From positions 1 through 34,211 of the forward strand of contig LNEG01000235.1 in NCBI GenBank assembly GCA_001464865.1: a stretch of 34,211 bases of DNA. Reading direction: 5' to 3'. Positions 8,015-29,361 of the stretch are shown piece after piece. Under the pieces are notes generated by a model that saw only the letters and a list, made by a program, of their open reading frames with translations, did not search any database and was not told where the DNA came from. Position 1 is the stretch's first letter; each line of letters starts with the position of its first letter. Source of the DNA: Burkholderiales bacterium Ga0074133. GTDB taxonomy: Bacteria > Pseudomonadota > Gammaproteobacteria > Burkholderiales > Burkholderiaceae_C. The position numbers and the translations under genes were made by a program.

Positions 8015-8923
8015 ATGATTGACGTCACCGTAGAAAATTTTGAAGCCGAGGTGGTTGCCGCCTCGATGAACGGCCCCGTGCTGGTCGATTTCTGGGCCCC
8101 GTGGTGCGGGCCCTGCAAGTCGCTCGGGCCCGTGCTGGAAAAGCTGGAGACCGACTACGCCGGCCGCTTCAAGCTGGTCAAGATCGACTCCGACCAAGAG
8201 CAGCAGATCGCCGGCATGTTCGGCATCCGCAGCATTCCCACCTGCGTGTTGCTGATGAACGGCCAGCCCGTGGACGGCTTCATGGGCGCGCTGCCTGAAG
8301 GCCAGGTGCGCGCATTCCTGGACAAGCACATCCCTTCGGCCGAGGCGATCGAGGCCGAGATCGAGGAAGAAGAAGCGCTGCAGGCGCTGTCGGCCGGCGA
8401 TACCGGCGCTGCGCTCGAGAAGCTGCAGCATGCCGTCGTGACCGACCCCGGCAACGACGATGCCCGCTTTGATTACGTCAAGCTGCTGTTGCAGCTAGGC
8501 CGCGACGATGACGCCAAGGTGGCGTTTGCGCCGGTCATTGCCAAGGCTGCAGGCTCGGCCCGGCTGGGAGCACTCAAGGCGTGGATGGATGCTATTGATT
8601 TCGTAGCTGCAGGCGCTTATGGAGAAAGCGCCTATGCCGAGTTTGATGCAAAAATTGCCGCCAACAAGCGCGATTCCGATACCCGCTTTGCCCGTGCACG
8701 CTGGCATCTGGCCCACCAGCGCTTCACGGACGCCATGGACGAGCTGCTGGAAATCCTCATGCGCGACAAGGCCTGGAACGACGAGACGGCGCGCAAGACC
8801 TACGTGCACATCCTGGAACTGATCGAGCCCCCGAAGGTAAAGGTGGCCGACGGCCAGATACCGCCATCCGACCCTTTGGTGGCAACCTACCGGCGCCGCC
8901 TGTCCAGCGTGGTCCTGAGCTGA
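8015..8923 (+). CDS. cnoX: Thioredoxin-TPR chaperone, CnoX (YbbN) family
   Basis: The protein (302 residues) has an N-terminal thioredoxin domain (about 1-110) with WCGPC at 30-34 (Cys31, Cys34) and the cis-Pro segment SIPT (73-76). A TPR-like helical C-terminus follows (from about 120). This is the CnoX layout: a holdase that protects clients from oxidative damage and hands them to GroEL. E. coli CnoX lacks the active CxxC, whereas the Caulobacter type keeps it; this protein has the redox-competent form. The frame is open upstream to 7913, but the ATG at 8015 begins the domain directly (MIDVTVENF). Residues near 193-214 are encoded by a dispersed repeat (8591-8656). Confidence 0.92.
   Translation: MIDVTVENFEAEVVAASMNGPVLVDFWAPWCGPCKSLGPVLEKLETDYAGRFKLVKIDSDQEQQIAGMFGIRSIPTCVLLMNGQPVDGFMGALPEGQVRAFLDKHIPSAEAIEAEIEEEEALQALSAGDTGAALEKLQHAVVTDPGNDDARFDYVKLLLQLGRDDDAKVAFAPVIAKAAGSARLGALKAWMDAIDFVAAGAYGESAYAEFDAKIAANKRDSDTRFARARWHLAHQRFTDAMDELLEILMRDKAWNDETARKTYVHILELIEPPKVKVADGQIPPSDPLVATYRRRLSSVVLS
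8591..8656 (+). repeat. Palindromic dispersed repeat copy inside cnoX (forward)
   Basis: The element starts GCTATTGATTTCGTAGCTGC and ends GTTTGATGCAAAAATT. At its core is a perfect 7-bp inverted repeat, GGCGCTT at 8612-8618 and AAGCGCC at 8626-8632. It is read in frame as AIDFVAAGAYGESAYAEFDAKI, in the linker between TPR-like helices of cnoX. It aligns over its whole length with the intergenic copies at 22778-22839 and 29299-29361 (reverse orientation). It carries more A/T than the flanking coding sequence. Confidence 0.72.
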
Positions 8924-8943
8924 CGCTTGCCCGCGCGGCATCC

Positions 8944-9834
8944 ATGGTCGATGCGTTGCACCGCATGTTGGGCGCGGCCAAGGCATCTCGCCCTGCGGCA
9001 GGGGTGAATCCGGCGGATGGGCCTGGGCGGGACAGCACCGCCACCCGTCTGCTGCTCTGCAGCCTGGGTTCTGCGCTTGTGCTCGCGGTGGCCGGTTGCG
9101 CCTCACGCCCCCCGACACCAGACGCCGTCGTGACGGGCGTTGCCCTGTCACGCGAACGGGTGGTGCTCCCGCCAGAAGCCGTGCTGGAAGCGGCACTGCT
9201 GGACGTCAGTGATCCCGACGCCCCGCCTCTGGTACTGGGCCGCCAGCGGCTAGCGCCTGCGGGCCAACCTCCGTTCGCATTGGCCATTCCGTACCCTGCG
9301 TCTCGCTTCGTGGTGAAGGGCCGCTACGAGGTGCGCGCCACCGTCACCCTGGAAAACCGCCTGCTGCTCGCGACCGTGCAGCGCTACCCCGTGCCGCAGG
9401 ACGCGGCGTTCCGTCATGTCAGCCTGCAGTTGCAGCGCATCTGGCCCCAGGCGGCCACTGCCGACGCCGCGGTGCCGCTGCTGCTGACACACTGGCGGCT
9501 GACGGAAATCCAGGGCGAAGCGGTAGCCCGTCCTGCAGCAGGTGCGCTGCCGTCGCCGCACCTGGTCTTTCAGGCGGATGAGCCGCGCGTGACGGGGGCC
9601 GGAGGGTGCAACCGGTTCCTTGCCGACTACACGGCGCAGGGCGCGCAGCTGCGCTTCGGGAGGGTGGTGTCCAACATCACGCTGTGCCTGCAGAGCGCCG
9701 CGACCGAAGAGCGCCTGTTTGCTGCGCTCGCCCTGGTGGCTAGCTACCGCCAGCAGGGTACGCAGCTGCTCCTCAGGGATGCAGACGGGCAGCCCGTGCT
9801 CAGATTCGAAGCGGACGAAGCGGTGTTGCAGTAA
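8944..9834 (+). CDS. Lipoprotein with YbaY (YscW) and META (HslJ-like) domains
   Basis: The 296-residue frame contains a lipobox LAVAGC (Cys52). A YbaY/YscW-type beta domain (about residues 60-150) has the hallmark run RVVLPPEAVLEAALLDVSDPDAP. A META domain (about 180-290) has LLLTHWRLTEIQGEAV, GAGGCNRFLADYT and VVSNITLCLQS, matching the HslJ family. It is a predicted periplasm-facing lipoprotein, perhaps stress-related; no enzymatic role can be read from it. The ATG at 8944 leaves an unusually long stretch before the signal segment. ATG 8965 or GTG 9004 are possible alternatives, and no convincing ribosome binding site chooses between them. It follows cnoX by 20 bases on the same strand and may be co-transcribed. 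Confidence 0.8.
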   Translation: MVDALHRMLGAAKASRPAAGVNPADGPGRDSTATRLLLCSLGSALVLAVAGCASRPPTPDAVVTGVALSRERVVLPPEAVLEAALLDVSDPDAPPLVLGRQRLAPAGQPPFALAIPYPASRFVVKGRYEVRATVTLENRLLLATVQRYPVPQDAAFRHVSLQLQRIWPQAATADAAVPLLLTHWRLTEIQGEAVARPAAGALPSPHLVFQADEPRVTGAGGCNRFLADYTAQGAQLRFGRVVSNITLCLQSAATEERLFAALALVASYRQQGTQLLLRDADGQPVLRFEADEAVLQ

Positions 9835-9907
9835 GCGGCAAACCGATGTGCCCATAGCCCGCGGCCGGCGAGCAGGCGTCGATTCGCTGTCAGCGCCTCG
9901 CAATGCC

Positions 9908-10828
9908 TCAGGCTGTGAGCCGGTCCAGGGCTTCGCGGTACTTGGCGGCGGTTTTTTCGATCACCTCGCGCGGCAGGCGGGGCGCTGGCGCGGTCTTGTC
10001 CCAGGGCTTGCCTGCGATCTGCGCCTGCTCCAGCCAGTCGCGCACAAACTGCTTGTCGTAGCTGGGCGGGTTTTCGCCACGGGCCAGCGCGTCTGCATAG
10101 CCCTCCACGGGCCAGTAGCGCGAGCTGTCGGGGGTCAGTACTTCGTCCATCAGCACCAGCGTGCCGTCGGGTGCCAGGCCGAACTCGAACTTTGTGTCGG
10201 CAATGATCATGCCCTTGGTGAGCGCAATTTCGGCCGCGGCCTTGTAGATGGCAATGCTCAGGTCACGGATGCGGGTGGCCAGGTCGGCGCCGATCATTTC
10301 CACCGTCTGCTCGAAGGTGATGTTTTCGTCGTGCTCGCCTGCAGCCGCCTTGGCAGCCGGGGTGTAGATGGGCTCGGGCAGCCTGGCTGCGTTGGTCAGG
10401 CCTGCGGGCAGCGGTACGCCGCACACACCCTGCGAGTCCTGGTACTCCTTCCAGCCGCTGCCGGCCAGGTAGCCGCGCACCACGGCCTCGACGGGGATGG
10501 GCTTCAGGCGCTGCACCAGCATCGAGCGGCCGCGCACCTGCGCCGCTTCGGCCGGGCTCACCACGCTTTCGGGCGCATCGCCGGTGAGGTGGTTGGGGCA
10601 GATGTGGCCGAGCTTGTCGAACCAGAAAAGCGCCATTTGCGTGAGCAGCTCGCCCTTGCCCGGAATAGGTTCGCCCATGATCACGTCAAACGCCGACAGT
10701 CGGTCGCTGGCCACCATCAGGATGCGGTCGTCGCCCACGGCGTAGTTGTCACGCACCTTGCCCCGCGCCAGCAGGGGCAGGGATGTGAGGGCAGAGGTGT
10801 GCAAGGCGGGGGAGCTTGGCTGGTTCAT
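9908..10828 (-). CDS. purC: Phosphoribosylaminoimidazole-succinocarboxamide synthase (SAICAR synthase)
   Basis: PurC (306 residues) joins CAIR, the product of PurE, with aspartate using ATP to make SAICAR. The N-terminal motif [29 protein letters not shown] (from residue 21) and the central [20 protein letters not shown] are diagnostic. It is longer than the 237-residue E. coli enzyme and matches the roughly 300-residue form found in many betaproteobacteria. The frame is open upstream to 11074, but the ATG at 10828 just precedes the conserved domain and the upstream part looks like non-coding antisense of the MFS leader. It is followed on the other side by the divergent MFS gene; promoters should lie in 10829-11063. 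Confidence 0.95.
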
Positions 10829-11063
10829 GGTGTGGTGTGGCGGTCGGTATCCACCGCGGCCTGGCCTGCGGGGCGGTGTGGTGTCGGGGCACTGCCCCGC
10901 GCAACCGGCTGATTTTACGCGTCGGGCGCAGCCCGCTGGCGGCGACGGCGGGCGGCCTGCGCCGGACGCCACCGGCCGCTGGCCATGCGTCCGCTGCAGT
11001 GTCTGGCGCATTGCGGCACACTGCGCTGCTTCGATCTGTTCGGCCGCCGTCCGGCGACTCCCC

Positions 11064-12329
11064 GTGTCCTCCACCCCCTCCGATCCTCGCAGTGCCGCGC
11101 CCGTGCCTGCACCTGACCCCGTACTTCAGCGCCGCGAGTTCTGGCTGCTGATCACCCTTGCGGGCGTGCAGTTCACCCACATCCTCGACTTCATGATCAT
11201 GATGCCGCTGGGGCCGCAGTTCACCCGGCTGTTCAGCATCAGTGACGCCCAGTTTGGCATGCTGGTGTCCGCCTACACCCTGGCTGCGGGCGCCTCGGGC
11301 CTGCTGGCTTCGACCTACATAGACCGCTTCGGGCGCAAGCGGTTGTTGCTGGTGCTGTACTCGCTGTTTGGCCTGGCCACGCTGGCCTGCGGGCTGGCGC
11401 CGACGTATGGATCGCTGATGGTGGCGCGTGTGCTTGCCGGCTTCTTTGGCGGGGTGCTTTCGGCCCTCTCGCAGACCATCGTGGCCGATGTGGTGCCGTT
11501 TGAGCGGCGCGGCCGTGCCATGGGCATCGTGATGACGTCGTTTTCGGTATCCACCGTGGCCGGGGTCCCGCTGGGGCTGCTACTGGCGCAGTGGGGCAGC
11601 TGGCATACGCCGTTCTTCGCCATTGCTGCCATGGTCGGCCTGCTGGCAGTCATCGCGGCGCGCACCATGCCGCAGCTTTCGGCGCATGTGGAGGGAGCCT
11701 CGGGCCGGTCCGTCGTCCAGGGCATCACGCAAGTGCTGGTCGATGCCAACCACCGGTGGGCGTTCCTGTTCACAGCGCTGCTGATGTTCACGGGGTTCAC
11801 CGTGATTCCATACATCACCATCTACCTGCAGACCAACGCCGGAGTGCGCCCTGACCAGATCCCGCTGGCCTACCTGTGCGGCGGCGTGGCCACGCTGTTC
11901 ACCGCGCGCCTGTTCGGGCGGCTGACGGACCGCTATGGCAAGGTGGAAACCTTCCGGGCGCTGGCGCTGGGAGCGGCGCCTTGCCTTCTCGGAATCACGC
12001 TGGTCGAGGGTTTTTCGCTGTGGGTGGTGCTGTTGGTGTCCACGCTGATGTTCGCGATCGTCAGCGGGCGCATGATTCCGGGCATGGCCATCGTGGCCTC
12101 GGCGGCCCAGCCGCAGCTGCGCGGTACCTTCATGACGCTCAATGCGTCGGTGCAATCGGCGTCGATGGGTGTGGCGTCGGTGGTGGGTGGCCTGGTGATC
12201 AGCCGCGATGCGCAGGGGCTGGTGCAGGGCTACTGGATGTGCGCGGTGCTGGGCATCACGGCCAGCCTGTTGTCGATGCTGGTCGTCGCCAAGCTGAAGA
12301 TGCACGGGGCGCCAGTCAGCGCCCGCTGA
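11064..12329 (+). CDS. MFS transporter (12-helix major facilitator)
   Basis: From a GTG at 11064 the protein has 421 residues and about twelve hydrophobic helices. Motif A lies between helices 2 and 3 as [14 protein letters not shown] (about 83-96), and a second copy appears in the C-terminal half as [17 protein letters not shown]. The TM1 stretch [24 protein letters not shown] resembles the sugar-efflux/AraJ-like group, but the substrate cannot be assigned. No ATG lies near the N-terminus. GTG 11064 and GTG 11103 are the available starts, and neither has a clear ribosome binding site. The longer upstream frame overlaps purC antisense and is not credible. The gene is divergent from purC. Confidence 0.85.
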
Positions 12330-12567
12330 GTCGCAGGGCCCGCGAATGCGGTCTGCAACCTATTCCCTCCAGCATTGTGCGCGGGTTTCAGGCCGACCGC
12401 ACCTTGCCGGGCATAACCCAGCAATACGTGACGGTATGGGATTGCTTTTCGCCGGTGGCAGGGGCATAGTGAACTCAAGTCAGCGGATCCATCGACGCGT
12501 TCTTCCCCGGGCCACTCCTCTACCCAAGGATGGCGTTTTTCCACCGAGAGCCACAGGAGACTACTTT

Positions 12568-12903
12568 ATGAATCTGACGATCAGCGGGCATCACCTTGAA
12601 GTCACTCCAGCCTTGCGCAGCTATGTCACGTCCAAGCTGGAACGCGTCACCCGGCATTTCGACCAGCTGGTGGATGTCAAGGTGCTGCTCACGGTAGAAA
12701 AGCAGAAGGAAAAGGAAAAGCGCCAGCGGGCAGAGTGCAACATCCACGTCAAGGGCAGCGATCTGTTTGCAGAAAGCTCCCACTCCGACCTGTACGCCGC
12801 GGTGGATGAGCTGATCGACAAGATGGACCGGCAGGTGGTGCGCCACAAGGACCGGCTGCAGGACCACCACCACGAAGCCGCCAAGCGCGAGATGCACGCC
12901 TGA
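12568..12903 (+). CDS. hpf: Ribosome hibernation promoting factor, short form
   Basis: This 111-residue protein begins [20 protein letters not shown] and has the classic beta-alpha-beta HPF/RaiA fold sequence, ending [19 protein letters not shown]. It binds the 30S A/P sites and promotes 100S dimer formation in stationary phase. Its length fits the short form that acts with RMF-type factors in gammaproteobacteria and alone in many others. A CAGGAG ribosome binding site lies 8 bases before the ATG. It is followed by ptsN and hprK. In many proteobacteria rpoN precedes hpf; here the upstream neighbour is an MFS gene instead. Confidence 0.95.
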
Positions 12904-12930
12904 CGCGCCGGCCCTGAGCCCGGCCCGCAA

Positions 12931-12953
12931 CCGCCCTGACGGGCGGTTTTTTT
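12931..12953 (+). terminator. Intrinsic terminator after hpf
   Basis: The stem CCGCCC (12931-12936) pairs with GGGCGG (12941-12946) around a TGAC loop and is followed by seven T residues. It lies 28 bases after the hpf stop and should separate hpf from ptsN, at least partly. Confidence 0.88.
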
Positions 12954-12990
12954 GTTGCCTGATGCGCCGGAATCAGGGTTTTCGCCAACA

Positions 12991-13000
12991 TGTGCATAAT
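12991..13000 (+). promoter_or_regulatory. Possible extended -10 promoter of ptsN
   Basis: TGTGCATAAT is an extended -10 element (TGn then CATAAT). It lies just behind the hpf terminator and about 15 bases before the ptsN ATG. No good -35 is visible, which is acceptable for an extended -10. The leader would be very short. Confidence 0.35.
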
Positions 13001-13014
13001 TGTTACCCTTGACC

Positions 13015-13482
13015 ATGAACCGACTCGCCTCCATCCTGCCTGCCGCTCAAGTGCTTGTGAGCGTGGACGCCACCAGCAAAAAGCGTGCTTTTGAAGAGGC
13101 AGGTCTGCTGTTCGAGAGCCAGCACGGGCTTTCGCGTGCGTTGATCACCGACAGCCTTTTTGCGCGCGAGCGTCTGGGCTCTACCGGTCTTGGCCACGGC
13201 GTGGCCATACCCCACGGCCGCATCAAGGGCCTCAAGGCCCCGATGGCCGCTGTGTTCCAGTTGCTCAACCCCATCGGTTTCGATGCACCAGACGAGCTGC
13301 CCGTCGGCTTGCTGATCTTTCTGCTGGTGCCCGAAGCGGCCACGCAAAAGCACCTGGAAATCCTGTCGGAAATCGCGGAGCTGCTCAGCGATTCCGCCTT
13401 GCGCGAAAAGCTCAAGTCCAGCAGTGATGCCGCCGAATTGCACGGCATGATTGCCGGCTGGCAGTCCACCCAGGCCGCCTGA
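13015..13482 (+). CDS. ptsN: Nitrogen PTS EIIA component (EIIA-Ntr)
   Basis: PtsN (155 residues) is the terminal phospho-acceptor of the regulatory nitrogen PTS. Unlike sugar EIIA proteins it has no transport partner; it controls K+ uptake and other targets by its phosphorylation state. The phosphorylated histidine lies in [11 protein letters not shown] (His67). In E. coli the dephosphorylated form binds TrkA, and a trkA gene is present later in this window. The ATG at 13015 is chosen over an upstream TTG at 13000. It sits between hpf and hprK, the usual order in beta- and gammaproteobacteria. Confidence 0.95.
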
Positions 13483-13522
13483 CCGCTACCTACCGTTCAA
13501 CGCGCAGCCGCCGCCTCCTGCC

Positions 13523-14479
13523 GTGAAACCCAATGTTGTCAGTGCCGATGTACTTTTCGAGGAATTTCGCGGCCTCCTGAAATGGGAATGGGTGGCTGGC
13601 CTCGGCGCATCCGAGCGCCGTTTTGACGAAGTCGCCGTCCGCTCGGCCCGCTCGGGCGCCGATCTGGTCGGCTATCTCAACTACATCCATCCCTACCGGG
13701 TCCAGATCCTGGGCGAGCGCGAGATCGCCTACGTGGGCAGCGCATCCCCCGAGGATTGCAAGCGCCGCATTGCGCGCATCGTCACCCTGGAGCCGCCCGT
13801 GCTGGTGCTGGCCGACAACCAGGTGGCGCCCGATGAACTGGTATCAATGTGCGAGCGGGCCCAGATCCCGATGTTCTCGACGCACGAGTCATCGGCGTTC
13901 GTCATTGATGTGCTGCGTGCCTATCTGTCCAAGCACTTTGCCGACCGCACCACGATGCACGGCGTGTTCATGGACATCCTGGGACTGGGCGTGCTCATCA
14001 CCGGCGAGTCCGGCCTGGGCAAGAGCGAGCTGGGGCTGGAACTGATTTCGCGTGGCAACGGTCTGGTGGCCGACGACGCCGTGGACCTGTTTCGCATCAA
14101 CCAGACCACCATCGAAGGCAAGTGTCCCGAGTTGCTCCAGAACCTGCTGGAAGTGCGCGGCATTGGCCTGCTGGACATCCGCGCCATCTTTGGCGAGACG
14201 GCAGTGCGCCGCAAGATGCGCCTTAAGCTCATCGTGCATCTAGTGCGCAAGGAAACGCTGGAACGCGACTACGAGCGCCTGCCGTACGAGCCGCTCACGC
14301 AGGACGTGCTGGGCGTGCCCGTGCTCAAGGTCGTCATCCAGGTGGTGGCCGGCCGCAACATCGCCGTGCTCGTCGAAGCCGCCGTGCGCAACACCATCTT
14401 GCAACTGCGTGGTATTGATACCTACCAGGAATTCGTCGAGCGCCACCGCCGCGCCATGGAGCGCGACACCGGCGGTTGA
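13523..14479 (+). CDS. hprK: HPr kinase/phosphorylase
   Basis: HprK (318 residues) phosphorylates and dephosphorylates a serine on HPr-type proteins, tying the PTS to energy state. The N-terminal regulatory domain ends near residue 135. The kinase domain has the Walker A loop GESGLGKS at 161-168 and the family signature [15 protein letters not shown] at 210-224. The start is a GTG ([15 protein letters not shown]), 41 bases after ptsN; the reading frame extends further into ptsN but homologues begin about here. No HPr or EI gene is in the window. Order hpf-ptsN-hprK is typical of Burkholderiales. Confidence 0.94.
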
Positions 14480-14563
14480 GTTCGCCAACGGTCGGGTTAC
14501 CAGGGATTCAGACCCCGCAACAAACCTGGGGCGAGCTGTCAAAACGGCTACCGCCCGATGCCA

Positions 14564-14640
14564 GCGCCCCCGTGCAAGGGCCGCCCCGCCGCACCGGGGG
14601 CGTCCCCCTCAGGGGGAAGGCGCGCCGCGCCTCAGAGGGG
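14564..14640 (-). repeat. GC-rich dispersed repeat, copy 2 (between hprK and fur)
   Basis: Read on the minus strand it starts CCCCTCTGAGGCGCGGCGCG, then GCGCCTTCCCCCT (14611-14623) and GAGGGGGACG. It finally contains GGGGCGGCCCTTGC (14574-14587). The 13- and 14-base blocks are identical to those of the copy at 16612-16733 and in the same order. A CCCCCT/AGGGGG hairpin could serve as a terminator for the convergent hprK and fur genes. Confidence 0.72.
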
Positions 14641-14641
14641 A

Positions 14642-15058
14642 TTATTTAGTTGCACAGGCAGCGCACTGGCCGTACAGCGCCATGGTGTGGTCTTGCACGA
14701 GCCAGCCCTTGGCCTTCGCGACGGCCTGCTGGCGTTTTTCGATCTCGGCATCGTAGAACTCTTCCACCTTGCCGCATGATGTGCAGATGAAGTGGTCGTG
14801 GTGCTGCCCCTCGTTGAGCTCGTACACCGCCTTGCCGCTCTCGAAGTTGCTGCGGATCAGGATGCCCGCCTGCTCGAACTGGGTGAGTACCCGGTAGACA
14901 GTAGCCAGGCCAATGTCCGAGCGATCTTCCAGCAGCACCCGGAAGACGTCTTCAGCCGTCATGTGCCGCTGGGCGCCTTTCTGGAAGATCTCCATGATCT
15001 TCAGGCGCGGCAGGGTGGCCTTCAGGCCGGTGCTCTTGAGTTCGTCGATGTTGGTCAT
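14642..15058 (-). CDS. fur: Ferric uptake regulator
   Basis: Fur (138 residues) is the iron-responsive dimeric repressor. The N-terminal winged helix includes [14 protein letters not shown] and the recognition helix region [18 protein letters not shown] (48-65). The metal sites are clear: [12 protein letters not shown] (86-97) with HHDH, Cys92 and Cys95, and a C-terminal QCAAC with Cys132 and Cys135 as a further structural zinc pair. The length is normal. It is divergent from bamE, an arrangement conserved in pseudomonads and Burkholderiales. No obvious Fur box was seen in the 82-base gap. Confidence 0.96.
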
Positions 15059-15104
15059 GGCATGCGCTTTCGGGGGAAGGCCCGGTCCCGGGGAGGCCAG
15101 CCGC

Positions 15105-15110
15105 TACAAT
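15105..15110 (+). promoter_or_regulatory. Probable -10 box of bamE promoter
   Basis: TACAAT lies 30 bases before the bamE ATG, in the 82-base gap shared with divergent fur. The -35 region is weak. The same TACAAT-plus-short-leader pattern occurs before gshA at 32441-32446. Confidence 0.4.
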
Positions 15111-15140
15111 GGTCCGATCATATCCTCAGCCCTTTTATCC

Positions 15141-15701: not shown

Positions 15702-15758
15702 CCTGCGGCCTGCCAGGCCACAGCCACGGCCGCCGCGGATTTTCATCACAGGACTCTC

Positions 15759-16607: not shown

Positions 16608-16611
16608 AACA

Positions 16612-16733
16612 ACCCCCTGTGGCGCGATGCGCCTTCCCCCTTCTCTCGAATGGCGGTGCCATTCGGGAAGGGGGACACCGCGAGCGCACGCATGTGAAAC
16701 CCCGCTGCGCAGATGGGGCGGCCCTTGCGCCGC
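16612..16733 (+). repeat. GC-rich dispersed repeat, copy 1 (between dapB and exbB)
   Basis: It starts immediately after the dapB stop and contains GCGCCTTCCCCCT (16629-16641) and GGGGCGGCCCTTGC (16714-16727), blocks shared with the copy at 14564-14640. Between these blocks this copy has an extra hairpin: CGAATGGC (16647-16654) pairs with GCCATTCG (16658-16665), extended outwards by CCCCCTTC and GAAGGGGG. The hairpin probably ends dapB transcription. The extra arm is absent from the other copy, so the element is modular. Confidence 0.75.
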
Positions 16734-16813
16734 GGTCCCCGGCCTCGGCTGCGCGCGCATTGCCAGCAGAGGTCAACGCGGCGCGCTGTGCGCATTCGAC
16801 AAGGGGCTGATCC

Positions 16814-17527
16814 ATGGACCTTCTCCACTGGTGGCGCCAGGGCGACGCGGTCACGCAGGGCACGGCCCTGGTGTTGCTGGCCATGTCGGTCGCCAGCTGG
16901 GTGGTGATTGTCTGGAAGCTGCGCACCATGCGCCGCGCCAGTGCCGACGTGCTGCGCTGCACGGCCGCGTTCTGGCAGGCCCCTTCGCTGGACCTTGCAG
17001 AGCAGCGTTTGCGGTCTTTTGACCGTGAAGCGCTAGTGCTTCCATTGGTTGTTGCTGCAAATTCGATAGCAAGGCGGCCCCTCGCTCCGCACGGCGCCGG
17101 GACCCTGGCTCATGCGGGCAGCCTGCCCCAACAGCTCACCCGCGTGCTGCGCGATGCACTGCACGGTGTGCTGGGCAAGCTGCAGTTTGGCCAGGTGCTG
17201 CTGGCCACCGTGGGCTCGACCGCACCGTTCGTGGGGTTGCTGGGCACCGTCTGGGGCATCTACCACGCGCTTACAGCCATTGCGGGTGCCGGGCAGATCA
17301 CCATCGACCGTATCTCCGGCCCGGTGGGCGAGGCGCTGGTGATGACGGCCGCGGGCCTGGCCGTGGCCATCCCGGCCGTGCTGGCCTACAACGTGTTCGG
17401 CCGCCTCATCGGCCGGGTCGAGGCCGACCTGGAAGGTTTTGCACTGGATTTGCGCGAGCTGCTCGTTGACACGGCAGCGGGGCCGGGCGACGGTGCAACC
17501 GTATCGGTGGAGCGCGCAGCGCCATGA
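16814..17527 (+). CDS. exbB: MotA/TolQ/ExbB-family proton channel subunit
   Basis: ExbB-type protein of 237 residues with three membrane segments (about 15-35, 135-160 and 175-200). The diagnostic segment is GSTAPFVGLLGTVWGIYHALTAI, and VGEALVMTAAGLAVAIPAVLAYN lines the channel. With its partner it turns proton flow into work for a TonB-like or TolA-like protein. No tonB or tolA is nearby, so the partner is not known. The stop overlaps the start of the ExbD gene (ATGA). The cytoplasmic loop near residues 66-86 is encoded by AT-rich atypical codons (CTA, ATA, AGG) matching a dispersed repeat at 17011-17070. The symbol is by family; TolQ is less likely because of the gene context. Confidence 0.88.
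   Translation: MDLLHWWRQGDAVTQGTALVLLAMSVASWVVIVWKLRTMRRASADVLRCTAAFWQAPSLDLAEQRLRSFDREALVLPLVVAANSIARRPLAPHGAGTLAHAGSLPQQLTRVLRDALHGVLGKLQFGQVLLATVGSTAPFVGLLGTVWGIYHALTAIAGAGQITIDRISGPVGEALVMTAAGLAVAIPAVLAYNVFGRLIGRVEADLEGFALDLRELLVDTAAGPGDGATVSVERAAP
17011..17070 (-). repeat. Palindromic dispersed repeat copy inside exbB (reverse)
   Basis: Read on the minus strand it begins GCTATCGAATTTGCAGCAAC. It includes the near-palindrome AAGCACTAGCGCTT (17028-17041) in the position of the core stem of the other copies. It is translated in the sense of exbB as REALVLPLVVAANSIA without breaking the frame. The codons CTA, CTT, TTG, GTT, GTT, AAT and ATA are a sharp local departure from the surrounding GC-rich usage. 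Confidence 0.55.
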
Positions 17528-18133: not shown

Positions 18134-20827
<2,694 letters not shown>

Positions 20828-20841
20828 GGGAGCCCTGGCCT

Positions 20842-21342: not shown

Positions 21343-21390
21343 CAATAACGATGGTGCGGGCAGGCGCCTGGACTGCGTGGATACGCGGCA

Positions 21391-22665: not shown

Positions 22666-22777
22666 GGCGGGGCGGGCGTTGGCCAGGCGCAGGGGGCGAT
22701 GGACCTGGTGGGCAATGCTACGCCCGCTGCGGCGGCGCCGCCCTGCAACGCGCGCCCAAGGTCTCCATCAGGGCGAT

Positions 22778-22839
22778 ATGAAGCCAAAAGTGCCTGGGGT
22801 CCAGTTTTTATCATGCCCATTTGCTATAAATTAGATAGC
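22778..22839 (-). repeat. Palindromic dispersed repeat copy, intergenic (reverse)
   Basis: Read on the minus strand it begins GCTATCTAATTTATAGCAAA and ends with CACTTTTGGCTTCAT. A short core hairpin CTGG (22794-22797) / CCAG (22801-22804) replaces the GGCGCTT stem of the cnoX copy. It lies in the 210-base gap between the two minus-strand genes ending at 22666 and starting beyond 22875, and is visibly AT-rich. Confidence 0.68.
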
Positions 22840-22875
22840 ATATGACTGCATTCGGTCCTGCTGCTTGTGCGTCCC

Positions 22876-23829
22876 TTAACCCACCCGCGCCCGCATCAGC
22901 GTGCTTTTGCCAAACAGCGACTCCACCAGGTCCACCGCCAGCACGGCCGTGCTGTTGCGCACGTCCAGCGCCGGGTTCAGTTCCATGATGTCGAGCGACG
23001 CCAGGCGGCCGCTGTCGGCGATCATTTCCATGCACAGCTGCGCCTCGCGGTAGGTGGGCCCGCCGGGCACGGTGGTGCCCACGCCGGGGGCGATGGCGGG
23101 GTCGAGAAAGTCCACGTCAAAGCTCACATGCAGGTGGGTGTCGGCATCCACCCCCTCCAGCGCGCGCTCCATCGTCTGGCGCATGCCCACCTCGTCGATG
23201 TAGCGCATGTCGAACACCTCCAGCCCGTGCTGCTGCACAAAGCGCTTTTCGCCCGCATCGACGCTGCGGATGCCGATCTGGCGGATCTGGTCGGTGCGCA
23301 GCGCCGGGCCGCCGCCGGGCATGCCGGCCAGCTGCGTCAGCTCGCCCGGGCCAAAGCCGCACAGGCAGGCCACGGGCATGCCGTGCACATTGCCACTGGG
23401 GGTGAGCTCGCTGGTGTTGAAGTCGGTGTGCGCATCGAGCCACAGCACGCGCAGCTTCTTGCCGGCTTCTGCACAGTGGCGCGCCACGGCGCCGATGCTG
23501 CCCAGGCCCAGGCAGTGGTCGCCCCCCAGCAGGATGGGGAAGTGGCCCTGCTGCAGCTCGGCATACACCGCGTTGAACACGCGCTGGTTCCATTCGACCA
23601 CCTCGGCCAGGTGGCGGTAGCCGCCCTGCGCGGGCTGCCAGGGGTTGGCGGGGCCGCTGAGGTTGCCGCGGTCCACCACCGCCAGGCCGTGGCTTTCCAG
23701 CGCCTGCTGCAGGCCCGCCACGCGCAGGGCCTCGGGGCCCATCGATGCGCCGCGCGCGCCCGCGCCGATGTCGGTGGGGGCGCCGATCAGGCTGGCGATG
23801 GTGTGAGGGGCGGTGTCGTTGTGCGGCAT
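22876..23829 (-). CDS. rocF: Arginase (ureohydrolase family)
   Basis: Arginase (317 residues) splits arginine into ornithine and urea. The three binuclear Mn motifs are present: LGGDHCLGLGS with His105, LDAHTDFNTSE with Asp132, His134 and Asp136, and SFDVDFLDPAIAPGVGT with Asp238, Asp240 and Asp243. The frame runs upstream to 23991, but the ATG at 23829 begins the conserved domain (HTIASLIGAPTDIGAGARG). The family also contains agmatinase and formimidoylglutamase; the SGNVHGMPVA segment and SDxD-like context favour arginase. The gene is on the minus strand next to the D-amino-acid enzyme, with a repeat between them. Confidence 0.9.
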   Translation of the reverse strand: MPHNDTAPHTIASLIGAPTDIGAGARGASMGPEALRVAGLQQALESHGLAVVDRGNLSGPANPWQPAQGGYRHLAEVVEWNQRVFNAVYAELQQGHFPILLGGDHCLGLGSIGAVARHCAEAGKKLRVLWLDAHTDFNTSELTPSGNVHGMPVACLCGFGPGELTQLAGMPGGGPALRTDQIRQIGIRSVDAGEKRFVQQHGLEVFDMRYIDEVGMRQTMERALEGVDADTHLHVSFDVDFLDPAIAPGVGTTVPGGPTYREAQLCMEMIADSGRLASLDIMELNPALDVRNSTAVLAVDLVESLFGKSTLMRARVG

Positions 23830-24165
23830 GGTCGTCGGGCTTTCTGGTGCAAAGCGGCAGGCGGTGAATGGATGGTTTGTGGCGTGCAGCGGGGGCGGGC
23901 AGTGCAGGCGCGGCCGGGATGGGGGCCGGGCCCGTATGCACAAAGCGGTGGGCCTCGTCCTTCGCTGCGGGGTGCCGGGATTTTGCGGCAACGCACAGCC
24001 AGCAGTCAGTCAGCCAACGGCGCAAACGGGGCATCCTTTTGTGCAAAGTGCACGACCCCGTTGCCGTTTTGGCAGATGGAGCCCACGTCCGGCCATTGGC
24101 ACCGGCCGCATCACCCTCGCCATTGCCTGCCGCGCCGCCGCCAGGCCAGGCGATAAACTTTGCCC
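23830..24165. other. 336-base divergent intergenic region with one palindrome
   Basis: This gap between divergent rocF and holA must hold promoters for both. I see no coding sequence I can support. A perfect palindrome GTGCA-AAG-TGCAC occurs at 24041-24053, preceded by a T-run, and could be an operator, but no regulator gene is adjacent. A GATAAACT close to the holA ATG resembles a -10 with a very short leader. The rest is GC-rich with no clear hairpin-plus-T terminator. Confidence 0.35.
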
Positions 24166-25221
24166 ATGCAAGTCGCCCTGGCCCAACTCTCGAACCACCT
24201 CCAACGGGGCCTGTCGTCGCTGTACGTGCTGCATGGCGACGAACCCCTGCTGCAGCAGGAGGCAGCCGACGCCATCCGCGCCACGGCCCGGGCCCAGGGC
24301 TACACCGAGCGCAGCAGCTACACCGTGGCAGGCGCGCACTTTGACTGGAGTGCGGTGCTGGCCGCAGGCGGGTCACTCAGCCTGTTTGCCGACAAGCAGA
24401 TCGTCGAGATCCGCATCCCCTCGGGCAAGCCCGCCAAGGACGGCAGCGTGGCCCTGCAGCAGGTGGCCGAATCGGCCCGGGGCAACGACAGCACCCTCAC
24501 GCTGGTGATGCTGCCGCGGCTGGACAAGGCCACGCGCACCGGTGCCTGGTTTGCGGCGCTGGAGGGCAACGGCACCTCGATCCAGATCGACCCCATCGAG
24601 CGCGGCATGCTCCCGCAGTGGATCGCCCAGCGCCTGGCCGCACAGGGCCAGCGCGTGGTGGGCGGCGAGGAAGGCCAGCGCACGCTGCAGTTCTTTGCCG
24701 ACCGGGTCGAAGGCAACCTGCTGGCCGCGCACCAGGAGATCCAGAAGCTCGCACTGCTGCACCCACCCGGCGAGCTGACCCAAGCCCAGGTCGAGGCCGC
24801 CGTGCTCAACGTGGCGCGCTACGACGTGTTCAAGCTGTCCGAGTCGGTGCTGGCCGGGCACACCGCCCGCGTGCAGCGCATGCTGGACGGCCTGCAGGCC
24901 GAAGGCGAGGCCGAGGTGCTGGTGCACTGGGCGCTGGCCGAAGACATCCGCGCGCTCAAGCGCGTGAAAGACGCCATGAACGCCGGCCGTCCCCTGCCCA
25001 TGGCCCTGCGCGAAAACCGCATCTGGGGCCCCAAGGAGCGTTTGTTCGAGCGCATCCTGCCCAAGGCCAGCGACGCCGCCCTGGCGCGCCTGCTGCAGTC
25101 GGCCCACACGGTGGACGGCATCGTCAAGGGCCTCAAGCAGCCCGACTGGCCGCAGGACGGCTGGCAGGCGCTGCAGCGGCTGGCGTTTCAGGTGTGCAGG
25201 GTGACGGGGGCGGCGCGGTAG
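24166..25221 (+). CDS. holA: DNA polymerase III delta subunit
   Basis: HolA (351 residues) is the clamp-opening subunit of the clamp loader; it binds the beta clamp during loading. The N-terminal AAA+-like fold begins LSSLYVLHGDEPLLQQEAADAIRATARA, the DEPLL segment being typical for delta. The body includes the family segment LPRLDKATRTGAWFAAL and a C-terminal collar domain with VFKLSESVLAGHTARVQRMLDGL. The length matches the family (about 340). The ATG at 24166 is preferred over a TTG two codons upstream. In other genomes it follows lptE directly. Confidence 0.94.
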   Translation: MQVALAQLSNHLQRGLSSLYVLHGDEPLLQQEAADAIRATARAQGYTERSSYTVAGAHFDWSAVLAAGGSLSLFADKQIVEIRIPSGKPAKDGSVALQQVAESARGNDSTLTLVMLPRLDKATRTGAWFAALEGNGTSIQIDPIERGMLPQWIAQRLAAQGQRVVGGEEGQRTLQFFADRVEGNLLAAHQEIQKLALLHPPGELTQAQVEAAVLNVARYDVFKLSESVLAGHTARVQRMLDGLQAEGEAEVLVHWALAEDIRALKRVKDAMNAGRPLPMALRENRIWGPKERLFERILPKASDAALARLLQSAHTVDGIVKGLKQPDWPQDGWQALQRLAFQVCRVTGAAR

Positions 25222-25238
25222 CGCGGCCCTGCCAAGAT

Positions 25239-25694
25239 ATGCCGAGGGGCGTATTCCGTCGCGTATTTCTGAGAAGCGGCTACGTCATAAAGATACCGCG
25301 CTGGAGCCAGCTCGCTGCCGGGATGCGCAGCAATCGCTGGGAACGGGAGATGTGGACAACCTGGCGGCTCAAATTCCAGTGGGAGACCTTGTGCCCCGTG
25401 ATCTACGCCGATCGGTTCGGGCTGGTGGTGATCATGCGTCGGGCTGAGCAGCCCGTTTCGCAAGCCGTGGTCGACGACCTGCCTTGCTACTACCCGGATA
25501 TCACCGCTGAAACCAAGCACGCGGACTTCGGAGCTCTGGATGGAAGAGTTGTTGCGCTCGACTACGGCTTGCCGCTTGCTCAGGCAGTGACAGACAAGCG
25601 TCGCTACTACGCAGGGTTCGCAAACATGCCCGCACAACAGTTCCCGCGCTCACCCCGAAGCGACGCCTGGCCTGATACCGATTCACCGGATTGA
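25239..25694 (+). CDS. Small orphan protein, possible kinase-like fold
   Basis: This 151-residue frame is not a shadow: it has ordinary coding composition, is less GC-rich than its neighbours, and carries a dense aromatic pattern. Segments include VFRRVFLRSGYVIKIP (5-20), MRSNRWEREMWTTWRLKFQWETLCPVIYADRFGLVVIMRRAEQP (29-72) and ETKHADFGALDGRVVALDYGLP (91-112). I infer, without proof, a truncated or minimal kinase-like layout: Lys18 as the beta-3 lysine, Glu34 or Glu36 in helix C, and Asp108 in LDYG as metal aspartate. No HRD-type loop is evident. The N-terminus begins abruptly in what looks like a glycine-rich loop, so a few residues may be missing. It follows holA by 17 bases and may be a phage-type or mobile accessory gene. 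Confidence 0.6.
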   Translation: MPRGVFRRVFLRSGYVIKIPRWSQLAAGMRSNRWEREMWTTWRLKFQWETLCPVIYADRFGLVVIMRRAEQPVSQAVVDDLPCYYPDITAETKHADFGALDGRVVALDYGLPLAQAVTDKRRYYAGFANMPAQQFPRSPRSDAWPDTDSPD

Positions 25695-25711
25695 AGAGCC
25701 GCTTTCGTGCG

Positions 25712-26050
25712 TCAGACGCCAGATGCACGGCTTTGCTGAAGTGTCCCCGCCGCCTTCCCCACCCACATCTCCAGATTCGCCACCAGATCCTTCTGGCTGA
25801 ACGAACAGCTTTCTTCCGAAAACAGCGCGCTCGATTCCAGCCGGTCCAGCAGGCCCAGCAGCACCTCGCCGTAGCGCGGGGGCAGAGCGGCAAGCAGGGC
25901 GGTCTGGGCGCGGGCGGTGTCGGCCAGGGTGCTGGCCGGGCAGGCCTGGTCGCGGAATCGGGCCAGGGTGGATTCGATCAGCGCGAGCTGCTGCAGGGGC
26001 TCGGCCCTGGCTGTAGCTGTGGCTGTGGGGGTGGCAGTGGTGTCATGCAT
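25712..26050 (-). CDS. Conserved hypothetical protein
   Basis: The 112-residue protein (ATG at 26050; a TTG at 26059 would add three residues) starts with a Thr/Ala-rich low-complexity stretch. It continues as a helical, soluble domain: LQQLALIESTLARFRDQACPASTLADTARAQTALLAALPPRYGEVLLGLLDRLESSALFSEESCSFSQKDLVANLEMWVGKA. No signal, membrane segment or catalytic motif is visible. It lies in the gap between holA and proA, on the opposite strand, and is divergent from the next gene. I do not recognise the family. Confidence 0.65.
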   Translation of the reverse strand: MHDTTATPTATATARAEPLQQLALIESTLARFRDQACPASTLADTARAQTALLAALPPRYGEVLLGLLDRLESSALFSEESCSFSQKDLVANLEMWVGKAAGTLQQSRASGV

Positions 26051-26127
26051 GGGGCGCAAGCGTACTGCAGCACTGCTGCCCGCGCACTGCGGGCAAATCC
26101 CCAGCAGGGCTGAGGCTGCGCGCAGCT

Positions 26128-27903
26128 TTGGGCGGGCGGCTGCGCCGGGCGCTGTCAGAATCCACGCGTTTTGCCCGAAAGCCTGCCCTGACCCTTCAAC
26201 CCGTCCAGACCCCTGCGCCGCCTGCTGGGCCAGCCCGGCCCTGGTGGCACGCCCTGCGTCCTTTTGCGTGGGCGGCAGCCGCCGTGCTGGGGCTCGTGGC
26301 GCTGGGGCACGACGGGCGGCGCGTGGTGCAGCTCATGGCGCTGGCGCTGCCGGTGCTGGCATGGCTGGCCTGGCCGGTGCACAGCGCGGCGGTGCACCGG
26401 GTGCGGGCGGTGGTGGTGTGCGTGTGGGCGCTGCTTTTTGCGGGCGATGCCGTGGTGCGCGCTTACCTGCTGGATGCCTACCGGGCCGCGCCCGACAGTA
26501 CCGTGGTGCTGGCTGCAGCGGCCAACACCACGGCGCGCGAGGCGGGCGAGTATCTGTCGATGCACTGGCGCGCGCTGGCCGTGGGCGCGGGACTGGTGGC
26601 GGCAGCCCTGTGGCTGGTGGCGCGCAGTGCGAAGCGGGGTGTGCGCGCAGCCGCGCCGTGGCCGCGCTGGGGCGTGGCACTGCTGTGCGTGCTGCTGCTG
26701 CCCAGTGTGCTGGGCTATGCCAGCAAACCCTGGCGCAGGCTGCACCCGGTGGCTTTCTGGGCGCAGTGGAATGAGTCGGTGCACGCGCTGCGCCAGGGCT
26801 GGCGCGACCAGGCAGCGCAGCGCGATGCGGCGCTGGAGCGTGCGAGGGCGGCGGCGCCAGTGCTGCGGCACACGGGGCCGTCCACCGTGGTGCTGGTGGT
26901 CACCGACAGCATCAACCGCGACAACATGGGCCTGTACGGCTACGCGCGCGACACCACGCCGCGGCTGCAGTCGATGCACGGGCTGCTGGGCGACGACATG
27001 GTGGTGCTGCGCAATGCGTGGTCGGTCGATGCGAACACGGTGGAATCGTTGCGCAACATCTTCGGTTTTGGCCAGCATGCTGCAGACATGTCTTTTGCGG
27101 CGGCGTCCACCGCGGCATCGCCGGCGGCAGCGGGTGCCGTCAGTGCCACTGACGGCCTGCACGCCATCGCCCTGGCCCGGGCCGCGGGCTACAAGGTCTG
27201 GTGGATGAGCAACCACGACGACCTGGCCATCGAGCAGGAGCATGCGCGGCTGGCCGATGTGGTGGACATGGTCAACCGCACGCCGGGCCGTGCCGGTGCG
27301 TCGCTCGATGGTGAGCTGCTCGACTGCCTGCAGGAGGCGCTGGACGACCCGGCCGAGCGCAAGCTGATCGTGTTGCACCTGATGGGCGCGCACCCGCACT
27401 ACCGCCTGCGGTTTCCGCGCGGCGAGAACCCGTTTGACGACAGCGCCGACGCGGTGGACGCCCAGCTGGCCGGGCAGGGTCGCCCGGCCTGGGTGCGGCG
27501 CTTTCGGCACGAGTACGACGCCGCCTTGCTGTACCACGACTTCGTGGTGTCCGAGACGCTGCAGCTCACCCGCCAGGGCGCGCGGCCGGGTGAATACCGC
27601 GCGTGGATGTATCTGTCGGACCACGGCCAGGAGGTGGGCCACGGCAGCGACCGGGCGGGGCACAGCCCCAGCACTGCGTCGGGCTACCGCATCCCGGCCA
27701 TCGTGTGGCGCAACCGGGCTGCGCAGCCGGTGTCGGCGGCCATGGCGCAGGCACCGTTTCGCACCGACTGGGCGGGCTGGACGCTGGCCGATGTGCTGCG
27801 CATCGACTGGCCCGGCGCGCAGCCCGAGCGCAACGTCCTGCATCCCGGCTATCGCTGGCAGCCGCCGGTGCTGCCGCCGGGCGTGGTGTCGTTCACCGAC
27901 TGA
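26128..27903 (+). CDS. Phosphoethanolamine transferase-like membrane sulfatase-fold protein
   Basis: The 591-residue protein has an N-terminal membrane part (about five helices within 38-195) and a periplasmic sulfatase-fold domain, as in EptA/CptA/MCR enzymes that add phosphoethanolamine to lipid A or other glycans. Counterparts of the active-site elements are [21 protein letters not shown] (Asp260 in place of the usual metal Glu), NTVESL with Thr304 as nucleophile, and [17 protein letters not shown] with Asp498 and His499. The disulphide cysteines near the nucleophile in EptA are absent, so it is a divergent branch. No ATG lies before the first helix; TTG at 26128 is the best start and is uncertain. 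It is divergent from the hypothetical gene. Confidence 0.75.
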
Positions 27904-27977
27904 CGAGTCGGGGCCGCTGCGTCACTCGTTTGGCCGCCGCCTGGCCTGCCGGTGCGCAACTGCGTCAAAATCGCGGC

Positions 27978-29258
27978 ATGAACGCCCTCAACGTCGCTGA
28001 ATACACGCACACCCTCGGTTACCAGGCAAAAACAGCCTCTGCGCTGATGGCCAAAGCGCCGGCAGCTATCAAAAACAAAGCACTGCTGGCCCTGGCCCGC
28101 CTGCTGCGCGAGCAGACCGAAGCCCTGCAGGTGGACAACGCCCGCGACCTGGAGCGCGCCCGCACCGCTGGCCTGGCCGAGCCGATGGTGGACCGCTTGA
28201 AGCTCAGCCCCAAGGTGCTGGAGACCTGCGCCCAAGGCTGCGAGCAGCTGGCCGCCATGCCCGACATCATTGGCGAGATCATCGGCATGAAGCAGCAGCC
28301 CAGCGGCATCCGCGTGGGGCAGATGCGCGTGCCGATTGGCGTGTTCGGCATGATCTACGAGAGCCGTCCCAACGTGACCATCGAGGCCGCGTCGCTGTCC
28401 ATCAAGAGCGGCAACGCCTGCATCCTGCGCGGCGGCTCAGAAGCCATCGACTCGAACAAGGCACTGGCCAGGCTGGTGGCCCAGGCGCTGGCCGAGGCCG
28501 GCCTGCCGCAAGACGCGGTGCAGCTGGTGCAGACCACCGACCGCGAGGCCGTGGGCCAGCTGATTGCCATGCCGCAGTTTGTAGACGTGATCATTCCGCG
28601 CGGCGGCAAGGGGCTGATCGAGCGCATCAGCCGCGATGCCAAGGTGCCCGTCATCAAGCACCTGGACGGCAACTGCCACACCTATGTGGACGACCCCTGC
28701 GACATCCCCATGGCCGTCAAGGTGGCCGACAACGCCAAGACGAACAAGTACAGCCCCTGCAACGCCAGCGAAGGCCTGCTGGTGGCGCGTGGTGTGGCGG
28801 CAGAGTTTCTGCCAAAGATCGGCGCGGTGTATGCCGCCAAGGGCGTGGAGATGCGCGGCTGCCCCGAATCTCTGGCCATCCTGAACAGCGTGTCAGGTGC
28901 CCGGCTGGTGCCCGCCACCGAGCAGGACTGGAGCGAGGAATACCTGGCCCCCATCATCAGCGTGAAGATCGTGGCCGGTGTGGATGAGGCCATCGCCCAC
29001 ATCAACCAGTATTCGAGCCACCACACCGACGCCATCCTGACCCGCGACCACATGCACGCCCAGCAGTTCCTGCGCGAGGTGGATTCGGCCAGCGTGATGG
29101 TGAACACCAGCACGCGCTTTGCCGACGGCTTCGAGTTCGGGCTGGGGGCAGAAATCGGTATCAGCACCGACAAGTTCCACGCGCGTGGGCCGGTGGGCAT
29201 CGAGGGCCTGACCTCGCTCAAGTACGTGGTGCTGGGCGAAGGCGAGGTGCGCGCCTGA
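27978..29258 (+). CDS. proA: Gamma-glutamyl phosphate reductase
   Basis: ProA (426 residues) reduces gamma-glutamyl phosphate to glutamate semialdehyde with NADPH in proline synthesis. The catalytic cysteine is Cys261 in [14 protein letters not shown], and [21 protein letters not shown] is the C-terminal signature. The overall length is close to the 417-residue E. coli protein, slightly longer at the N-terminus. The ATG at 27978 ([13 protein letters not shown]) is clear. Bases 28025-28081, encoding [20 protein letters not shown], align with the dispersed repeat. No proB is nearby. Confidence 0.97.
28025..28081 (-). repeat. Dispersed repeat copy inside proA (reverse)
   Basis: The minus strand reads GCTTTGTTTTTGATAGCTGC, then GGCGCTTTGG, and ends near GCTGTTTTTGCC. 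GCGCT (28041-28045) and AGCGC (28055-28059) form the short core stem. Fourteen bases, GGCAGCTATCAAAA, are identical to the intergenic copy at 29299-29361. It is in frame and encodes [20 protein letters not shown], at a position where ProA proteins normally vary. Confidence 0.6.
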
Positions 29259-29298
29259 AGCGGGCACCGCAGGCCTCTGTGAGGGCCGTGCAGGGCGG

Positions 29299-29361
29299 AT
29301 TTAGAGCCAAAACGGCCGCTGGTGCAGGTATTTATTGCACTGGCAGCTATCAAAATAATAG
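29299..29361 (-). repeat. Palindromic dispersed repeat copy upstream of trkA (reverse)
   Basis: Read on the minus strand it begins CTATTATTTTGATAGCTGCC and runs to the end through GGCCGTTTTGGCTCTAAAT. A core inverted repeat GTGCA (29322-29326) / TGCAC (29336-29340) corresponds to the GGCGCTT stem of the cnoX copy. It fills most of the gap between proA and trkA, ending 27 bases before the trkA start, so it may affect trkA expression. Confidence 0.7.

What the first reader, a model, noticed from the sequence alone, without database searches (positions are those of the whole stretch)
8591..29361. An AT-rich palindromic dispersed repeat of about 60 bp, found both between genes and in frame inside genes
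Six places share one element with a GCTAT...TAGC or reversed GCAGCTATCAAAA end, a central inverted repeat (GGCGCTT/AAGCGCC in the best copy) and a TTTTGnnnCAAAAAT-like end: cnoX 8591-8656, exbB 17011-17070, 22778-22839, proA 28025-28081, 29299-29361 and, weakly, purK 6597-6658. Two are intergenic. The rest are inside essential or core genes and do not break frame. This resembles the Rickettsia palindromic elements that insert in frame and add peptide segments. From general memory similar short repeats are common in Comamonadaceae, but I cannot cite a source. How it spreads (transposase in trans, gene conversion) is unknown.
Basis: partly seen in the sequence, partly recalled or inferred. Interest (0 to 1): 0.72.

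Follow-up and report, generated by a model that had tools for sequence, protein, structure and literature searches.

The report
Uptake-signal-like DNA motif in Comamonadaceae
A 65-letter DNA motif is scattered through this bacterium's genome and those of many relatives, even spelled out inside genes by choice of codons; it behaves like the 'self' tags that some bacteria use to recognise their own DNA, but that role is inferred and still needs a bench test.

Summary
A model built only from copies outside the window finds strong copies at 29298-29362, 8591-8655 (cnoX) and 28018-28081 (proA). purK and 22775-22839 are weak; exbB is not supported. The motif is 65 bp with a ~16-bp core between A/T tracts. 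It is abundant in 31 of 35 same-genus genomes and 18 of 160 family genomes, with no match in 24 other-family genomes.

The coding copies I could test are not insertions. cnoX and proA keep their length; the motif is written with AT-ending codons in motif-rich species and is missing in two motif-poor species of the genus. Of nine solved homologues that cover the motif none shows a clean 22-residue insert. Conserved motif columns diverge at half the rate of weak columns between close species.

This matches uptake signals of Pasteurellaceae and Neisseriaceae better than Rickettsia palindromic elements or REPs. Acidovorax and Verminephrobacter are competent, with apparently selective uptake (PMC4212676). 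Best explanation: a maintained motif, most likely a DNA-uptake signal (0.55); uptake is inferred, not shown. An integron cassette (DUF1010) carries a copy.

The parts
29298..29362 (+). best window copy, intergenic between proA (ends 29258) and the next gene (starts 29389, trkA-like by its product, recalled)
   Evidence: R1 59 bits, E 1e-12; HMM 37.8 bits. By eye, several relatives carry an oppositely oriented copy just after the proA stop
8591..8655 (-). copy written inside cnoX (ORF 7913-8923 +), 22 codons
   Evidence: R1 44.3 bits; no 22-codon gap in relatives; GC3 0.27 inside vs 0.83 outside
28018..28081 (+). copy written inside proA (CDS from 27978), codons about 14-35
   Evidence: R1 40.7 bits; found in 20 of 20 motif-rich genomes compared, own included, and not at this place in G005 or G002; aligns ungapped to 4ghk
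6597..6661 (-). weak copy inside purK (ORF 6164-7372 -)
   Evidence: R1 21.0 bits, E 0.002; purK-like genes of G178, G004 and G018 score 26.1, 12.3 and 13.2 at the same peptide; aligns ungapped to 4izo
22775..22839 (+). weak or decayed intergenic copy
   Evidence: R1 20.5 bits, E 0.003; HMM only about 2 bits for each end
17011..17070 (.). claimed exbB copy: not confirmed
   Evidence: no R1 match at E<=5; HMM 2.9 and 1.4 bits

Best explanation
The repeat is a 65-bp DNA recognition motif that arises and is kept in place by point mutation and recombination rather than by transposition. Shown here: in the coding copies that could be tested the motif is spelled by codon choice in a gene of normal or nearly normal length, and motif columns are conserved between species. 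Inferred: its most likely role is a DNA-uptake signal of natural transformation (USS/DUS-like). A type IV pilus receptor would prefer DNA with the motif, so fragments that carry it are taken up and recombined more often, which spreads and preserves copies wherever a gene end or a tolerant protein stretch allows (molecular drive). Intergenic copies may double as 3'-end hairpins.
For: In-situ origin: in cnoX, GC3 of the 22 motif codons is 0.18-0.59 in 18 motif-rich genomes (0.78-0.91 outside) but 0.86 and 0.95 in motif-poor G002 and G005, which align without a gap or one codon shorter. proA scores 12-34 bits in 20 of 20 motif-rich genomes; G005 has no match, G002 only 8.3 bits elsewhere on the other strand. 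Ten proteins were compared with solved homologues; nine cover the motif: 6 differ by a net 0-2 residues, 3 homologues lack 7-12, none 22. Maintenance: 27 orthologous intergenic pairs, top-information columns 39/540 vs lowest 87/615, p 1.5e-4; 11 pairs of strong copies 11/220 vs 32/250, p 0.004. No near-identical copies: best intergenic pair 50-56 of 65; AAA/TTT tracts swap. Both orientations occur alike. Competence with apparently selective uptake is reported in Acidovorax and Verminephrobacter (PMC4212676).
Against: No uptake was measured, and the genomes here are unnamed. The motif is longer (65 bp) and sparser (one per 4-11 kb) than known USS/DUS (close to one per kb, PMC1626085). A ComP-type pilin (PF16732) is found in 39 of 40 genomes whether or not they are motif-rich, own being the exception, so no receptor correlates. 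Regular spacing is not beyond what gene layout gives. Copies are slightly more alike than column-shuffled ones (nearest neighbour +0.7 to +2.1 letters intergenic, +2.7 in genes, several SD), so some shared descent or substructure exists. Four of 18 cnoX sites in motif-rich genomes score under 4 bits or nothing. A. temperans was not transformed by other Acidovorax DNA (PMC4212676), which a shared motif does not explain by itself. Three of nine homologues are 7-12 residues shorter at the motif, and a methylase copy may be a real insert.
Confidence: 0.55

Rival explanations
1. A chromosomal protein-binding motif (nucleoid organisation, segregation or replication) selected in place at many sites.
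For: Same in-situ and conservation evidence; A/T tract polarity is interchangeable, as for sites read by DNA shape.
Against: About 60-65 bits in chosen intergenic copies (inflated because strong copies were chosen) is far more than a binding site needs; near-total absence from 4 of 35 genomes of one genus fits a drive motif more easily.
Confidence: 0.2
2. A REP- or MITE-like mobile element, now mostly inactive, mobilised in trans (for instance by the mostly single-copy Y1_Tnp/RAYT-like gene), with later decay and selection.
For: Palindromic centre, high copy number, pile-up at gene 3' ends and in convergent gaps. Y1_Tnp in 16 of 18 motif-rich genomes. In 5 of the 20 fetched Y1_Tnp loci a copy of 8-29 bits lies about 330-350 bp from the 3' side of the domain, and in one more a 34-bit copy lies just upstream; 17% and 19% of predicted genes in G178 and G131 have a copy at their 3' end, so this is at most a mild excess. 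A methylase copy shared by two genera looks like an insert; its homologue did not cover the place.
Against: Tested coding copies are not insertions. Between two close genomes 26 of 36 and 23 of 26 copies are shared, 3 and 1 absent, 7 and 2 without usable flanks; the two absent sites that were aligned are not clean 65-bp gaps. Two motif-rich genomes have no Y1_Tnp match, while 15 of 22 motif-poor ones have one; the five own-genus loci G000, G004, G015, G022a and G001 have no copy over 10 bits. Columns decay unequally.
Confidence: 0.15
3. A transcript 3'-end hairpin (terminator or stabiliser) under selection at gene ends.
For: 133 of 157 copies of at least 20 bits are intergenic; 132 of 164 distances to neighbouring 3' ends are within 35 nt; convergent gaps 39/133 vs 89/742, divergent 8/133 vs 180/742.
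Against: In-gene copies on either strand; no clear stem covariation beyond controls. I did not score terminators.
Confidence: 0.08

Closest known systems
Uptake signal sequences (USS) of Pasteurellaceae
   Same: Core plus A/T-rich flanking segments, both orientations, non-coding preference with many coding copies, coding copies that arise by mutation and not insertion (PMC1626085, passages read)
   Different: 65 bp and partly palindromic here, several-fold sparser, uptake not shown
DNA uptake sequences (DUS) of Neisseriaceae
   Same: Variants between related groups ('dialects'), inverted arrangements at gene ends (PMC3630211, passages read)
   Different: DUS is a 10-12-mer (first found as a 10-mer) in thousands of copies; ComP receptor known there, none identified here
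REP elements with RAYT transposases
   Same: High-copy palindromes near gene 3' ends; intragenic copies are also known (PMC3733652, passages read)
   Different: No clusters, no consistent transposase link, tested coding copies not inserted
Rickettsia palindromic elements (recalled, and named in PMC3733652)
   Same: Found in frame inside genes
   Different: RPEs add a peptide by insertion; the tested copies here do not

Membership tests
DNA uptake sequences (USS/DUS) | Preferential uptake of DNA that carries the motif | not testable with these tools
   Only literature on relatives: selective uptake inferred in V. eiseniae, same-species transformation only in A. temperans (PMC4212676)
DNA uptake sequences (USS/DUS) | Strong genome-wide over-representation | tested here: met
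DNA uptake sequences (USS/DUS) | Coding copies arise by mutation, not insertion | tested here: met
   cnoX and proA across the genus; 9 solved homologues, 6 within a net 2 residues, 3 shorter by 7-12; a tenth (Mod) not covered. The genes were picked by me from 26 in-gene copies listed and the window; the rest were not tested
DNA uptake sequences (USS/DUS) | No orientation bias; preference for non-coding DNA | tested here: met
DNA uptake sequences (USS/DUS) | More regular spacing than random | tested here: inconclusive
   variance/mean 0.42-0.66 in 3 of 4 samples, but not beyond placement in random intergenic gaps
DNA uptake sequences (USS/DUS) | About one copy per kb, short 9-12 bp core | tested here: not met
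   one per 4-11 kb, ~16-bp core in a 65-bp motif
DNA uptake sequences (USS/DUS) | Cognate receptor pilin (ComP) | tested here: inconclusive
   PF16732 match in 17 of 18 motif-rich and 22 of 22 motif-poor genomes, 38 of 40 over the cut-off
Rickettsia palindromic elements | In-frame insertion that lengthens the protein | tested here: not met
REP elements / RAYT | RAYT transposase gene associated with the repeat in repeat-rich genomes | tested here: inconclusive
   16 of 18 motif-rich genomes have Y1_Tnp but 2 do not, 15 of 22 motif-poor ones do; a copy at the 3' side in 5 of 20 loci and upstream in one, background 17-19% of genes
REP elements / RAYT | Clusters of units | tested here: not met
   one gap under 500 bp among 188 copies of at least 15 bits in four samples
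Rfam RNA families | match to a described family | tested here: not met
   0 matches at E<=1 in the window

The most novel reading that the evidence does not exclude
Comamonadaceae have their own, third lineage of DNA-uptake watermark: a 65-bp composite, partly palindromic, shape-read signal, maintained by transformation drive, gained or lost between species of one genus, written into synonymous codons of core genes, and carried out of the family inside a class 1 integron cassette (orfD, DUF1010).
Probability: 0.5. Interest if true: 0.88.

Novelty: new variant of a known kind. Interest (0 to 1): 0.76.

Why it matters
The requirement for uptake sequences is described as unique to Neisseria and Pasteurellaceae (PMC3630211 passage). 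A third family, with species that have or lack the motif inside one genus, would let one test how uptake specificity arises, changes and is lost. It would also supply a candidate sequence for the selective transformation reported in Verminephrobacter and Acidovorax. Even if the role differs, a 65-bp motif imposed on codon choice in core genes is unusual, and it explains part of a Pfam family of unknown function (DUF1010).

Tried and rejected
RPE-like in-frame insertion: rejected for the tested copies. REP/RAYT: not excluded, see the rival. Hairpin as the selected object: no clear stem covariation beyond controls (one search has only 16 sequences). Regular spacing as support: withdrawn after the gap-matched control. 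ComP family as a discriminator: no. Empty-site test against motif-poor G002: no syntenic pair among 87 copies. Verminephrobacter was hoped for among named PilB loci but is not in the 80 returned; in those loci the profile hit Comamonas and Rhodoferax contigs (5 loci with a hit of at least 20 bits), three more had one weak hit each, 72 of 80 had none (no reversed control). exbB was dropped.

Rows dropped: cnoX G013 was mis-extracted and four distant loci (L122-L125) gave no frame by my filter, leaving 20 rows; one search used 27 of 44 G004 copies (in-gene, gapped or unmatched ones left out). G004 and G018 are close relatives, so pooled counts hold many copies twice. Gene calls are from my own predictor, which misplaces some starts; a few 'in-gene' rows are start artefacts or doubtful ORFs. 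One search's pattern counts are for one 16-mer, not whole motifs.

Literature: searches listed no description of this motif; sought six 15-16-mers of it in full text. The library is open-licence PMC only. Seen: PMC4212676 (outline, passages, section 21, section 23 part 1), PMC1626085, PMC3630211, PMC3733652 (passages). Others were seen only as listings.
Full report
Setting. The window is one whole 34-kb contig (C235) of a 4.34-Mb genome in 255 contigs, 92.8% complete. Genus and species are not given. Diaphorobacter and Acidovorax plasmid hits and Comamonas and Rhodoferax contigs with the motif point to the Comamonadaceae; that the genus is Acidovorax is inference.

The family is real. A pattern of its core found 75 places in the own genome against 13 for the pattern read backwards. 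Most of the fetched copies line up without gaps over 65 bp. Covariance model R1 was built from 16 of them, none from the window. In the window it finds 29298-29362 (59 bits), cnoX 8591-8655 (44), proA 28018-28081 (41), and weakly purK and 22775-22839 (21 and 20.5); exbB is not found. The own genome has 146 matches at E<=1 with 150 candidates scored. Four 400-kb samples of other genomes gave 57, 44, 99 and 120 hits against 0, 0, 2 and 0 in reversed sequence.

Distribution. In the genus 31 of 35 other genomes have 74-87 matches at E<=0.001 (87 were scored at most), while G002, G005, G030 and G031 have 2, 4, 0 and 2; 24 genomes of other families have none. With the 16-mer at one mismatch, 18 of 160 genomes of the family, in 16 of 141 genera, have 35 or more hits (up to 466), while no genome's control count exceeds 11; own has 15.

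Anatomy. A left A/T pair (TTTTG, then CAAAAT), an imperfect palindrome around GCGCTT-N7-AAGCGC, the nearly invariant GCAGCTAT, and a right A/T tract closed by ATAGC. Neighbouring letters switch together (AAA or TTT; CTT or CCC), but stem partners are not among the strongest correlations and do not clearly covary. Copies of one genome are almost independent: the best intergenic pair shares 50-56 of 65 letters. Nearest neighbours still exceed shuffles by 0.7-2.1 letters, several SD in two of three sets, so some shared descent or substructure is present. I see no sign of recent copying.

Where it sits. With a simple gene finder of my own, 133 of 157 copies of at least 20 bits are intergenic, although intergenic DNA is 10-16% of the samples. 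Of 164 distances to neighbouring 3' ends 132 are within 35 nt. Convergent gaps hold 39 of 133 (background 89 of 742), divergent gaps 8 of 133 (180 of 742). Of 54 in-gene copies of any score 41 are in phase 0, 24 along the gene and 17 against it.

Coding copies are written, not inserted. In cnoX, 18 motif-rich genomes have GC3 of 0.18-0.59 in the 22 motif codons and 0.78-0.91 elsewhere; in motif-poor G002 and G005 the same stretch, aligned without a gap or one codon shorter, has 0.86 and 0.95. The profile scores at least 10 bits at this site in 14 of the 18; G018, G015, G004 and G010 score under 4 or nothing, as do G002 and G005. In proA the motif is found in 20 of 20 motif-rich genomes, own included (12-34 bits), with nearly the same peptide in most; G005 has no match and G002 only 8.3 bits elsewhere on the other strand. 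Against solved homologues, AnmK, PurK and ProA align ungapped across the motif, Gph, RmlD and Lnt differ by a net 1-2 residues, and the YihE-, ThiL- and MtnN-type homologues lack 10, 7 and 12 residues; none lacks 22. A methylase copy in two genera looks like a real insert but its homologue does not cover it. The genes were chosen by me; other in-gene copies were not tested. This is the gap test that PMC1626085 used to show that USS are not insertions.

It is maintained. Between G004 and G018, 27 orthologous intergenic copies show 39/540 changes (0.072) in the 20 most informative columns, ranked in two other genera, against 81/593 (0.137) in the middle and 87/615 (0.141) in the lowest, p 1.5e-4 for the extremes; flanking non-coding sites 278/2401 (0.116), flanking coding sites 320/5641 (0.057). 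Columns 49-53 show 0 changes in 135. With strong copies only, which a few substitutions could not have removed from the sample, it is 11/220 against 32/250 in 11 pairs, p 0.004. Of 36 copies in one genome and 26 in the other, 26 and 23 are shared, 3 and 1 absent, 7 and 2 lack usable flanks; two absent sites were aligned and are not clean 65-bp gaps, the other two have about 1 kb of other sequence and were not aligned.

Mechanism. Copies in coding and non-coding DNA, both orientations, in-situ origin, A/T flanks and near-absence from some genomes of one genus are properties reported for uptake signals (PMC1626085, PMC3630211, passages). Independently, A. temperans, A. facilis and V. eiseniae are naturally competent, V. 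eiseniae needs type IV pili, and excess salmon DNA reduced its transformation only about tenfold and then no further, which the authors read as selective binding; the parts I read name no sequence (PMC4212676). I therefore put a DNA-uptake signal first. The steps from motif to receptor to uptake bias are inferred. Against it stand length, lower density, no receptor correlation and a spacing signal that gene layout explains.

REP/RAYT was tested and is not excluded. A Y1_Tnp gene occurs in 16 of 18 motif-rich and 15 of 22 motif-poor genomes. In 5 of 20 fetched loci (G131, G178, G179, G074, G063; 8-29 bits) a copy lies about 330-350 bp from the 3' side of the domain, and in G069 a 34-bit copy lies just upstream; in G178 and G131 17% and 19% of predicted genes have a copy at their 3' end anyway. 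Rfam has no match in the window. Plasmids: 3 of 72,556 records match; phages: none of 50,697.

Noticed in passing
L265 1987-2051 (CP076070, Vibrio anguillarum plasmid): The class 1 integron ORF annotated DUF1010 (between blaOXA-2 and qacEdelta1; the cassette name orfD is recalled) contains a 44-bit copy of the motif. Of four translated chromosomal copies scanned, one matches positions 1-26 of Pfam DUF1010 over its cut-off (25.6 vs 25 bits), one below it (17.9), two not at all. The cassette may thus stem from Comamonadaceae.
   Followed up: partly
window 14611-14639 and 16613-16641: A second, GC-rich inverted repeat (AGGGGGAAGGCGC... / ...GCGCCTTCCCCCT, 86% complementary); a similar GC-rich stretch stands in G018 where G004 has a weak motif copy.
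   Followed up: no
G000 whole genome: Own genome has few near-consensus cores (15 vs 224 in G001) and is the only one of 40 without a ComP_DUS match; it may be losing the system, or the assembly is incomplete.
   Followed up: no
proA to next gene, L071-L092: By eye, several relatives carry an oppositely oriented copy directly after the proA stop, while the own copy lies 39 bp downstream in the other orientation, so this gap gained a motif more than once or it was turned.
   Followed up: partly
Y1_Tnp loci L212, L214, L216, L218, L224: In five genera a copy or weak copy sits at a similar distance from the 3' side of the Y1_Tnp (RAYT-like) domain; with gene-end preference this may be ordinary, but it deserves a larger sample.
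   Followed up: partly
G074 C1: G074 has 20 Y1_Tnp matches, several of them in two pieces in different frames, unlike the one to three copies in the other genomes with a match.
   Followed up: no
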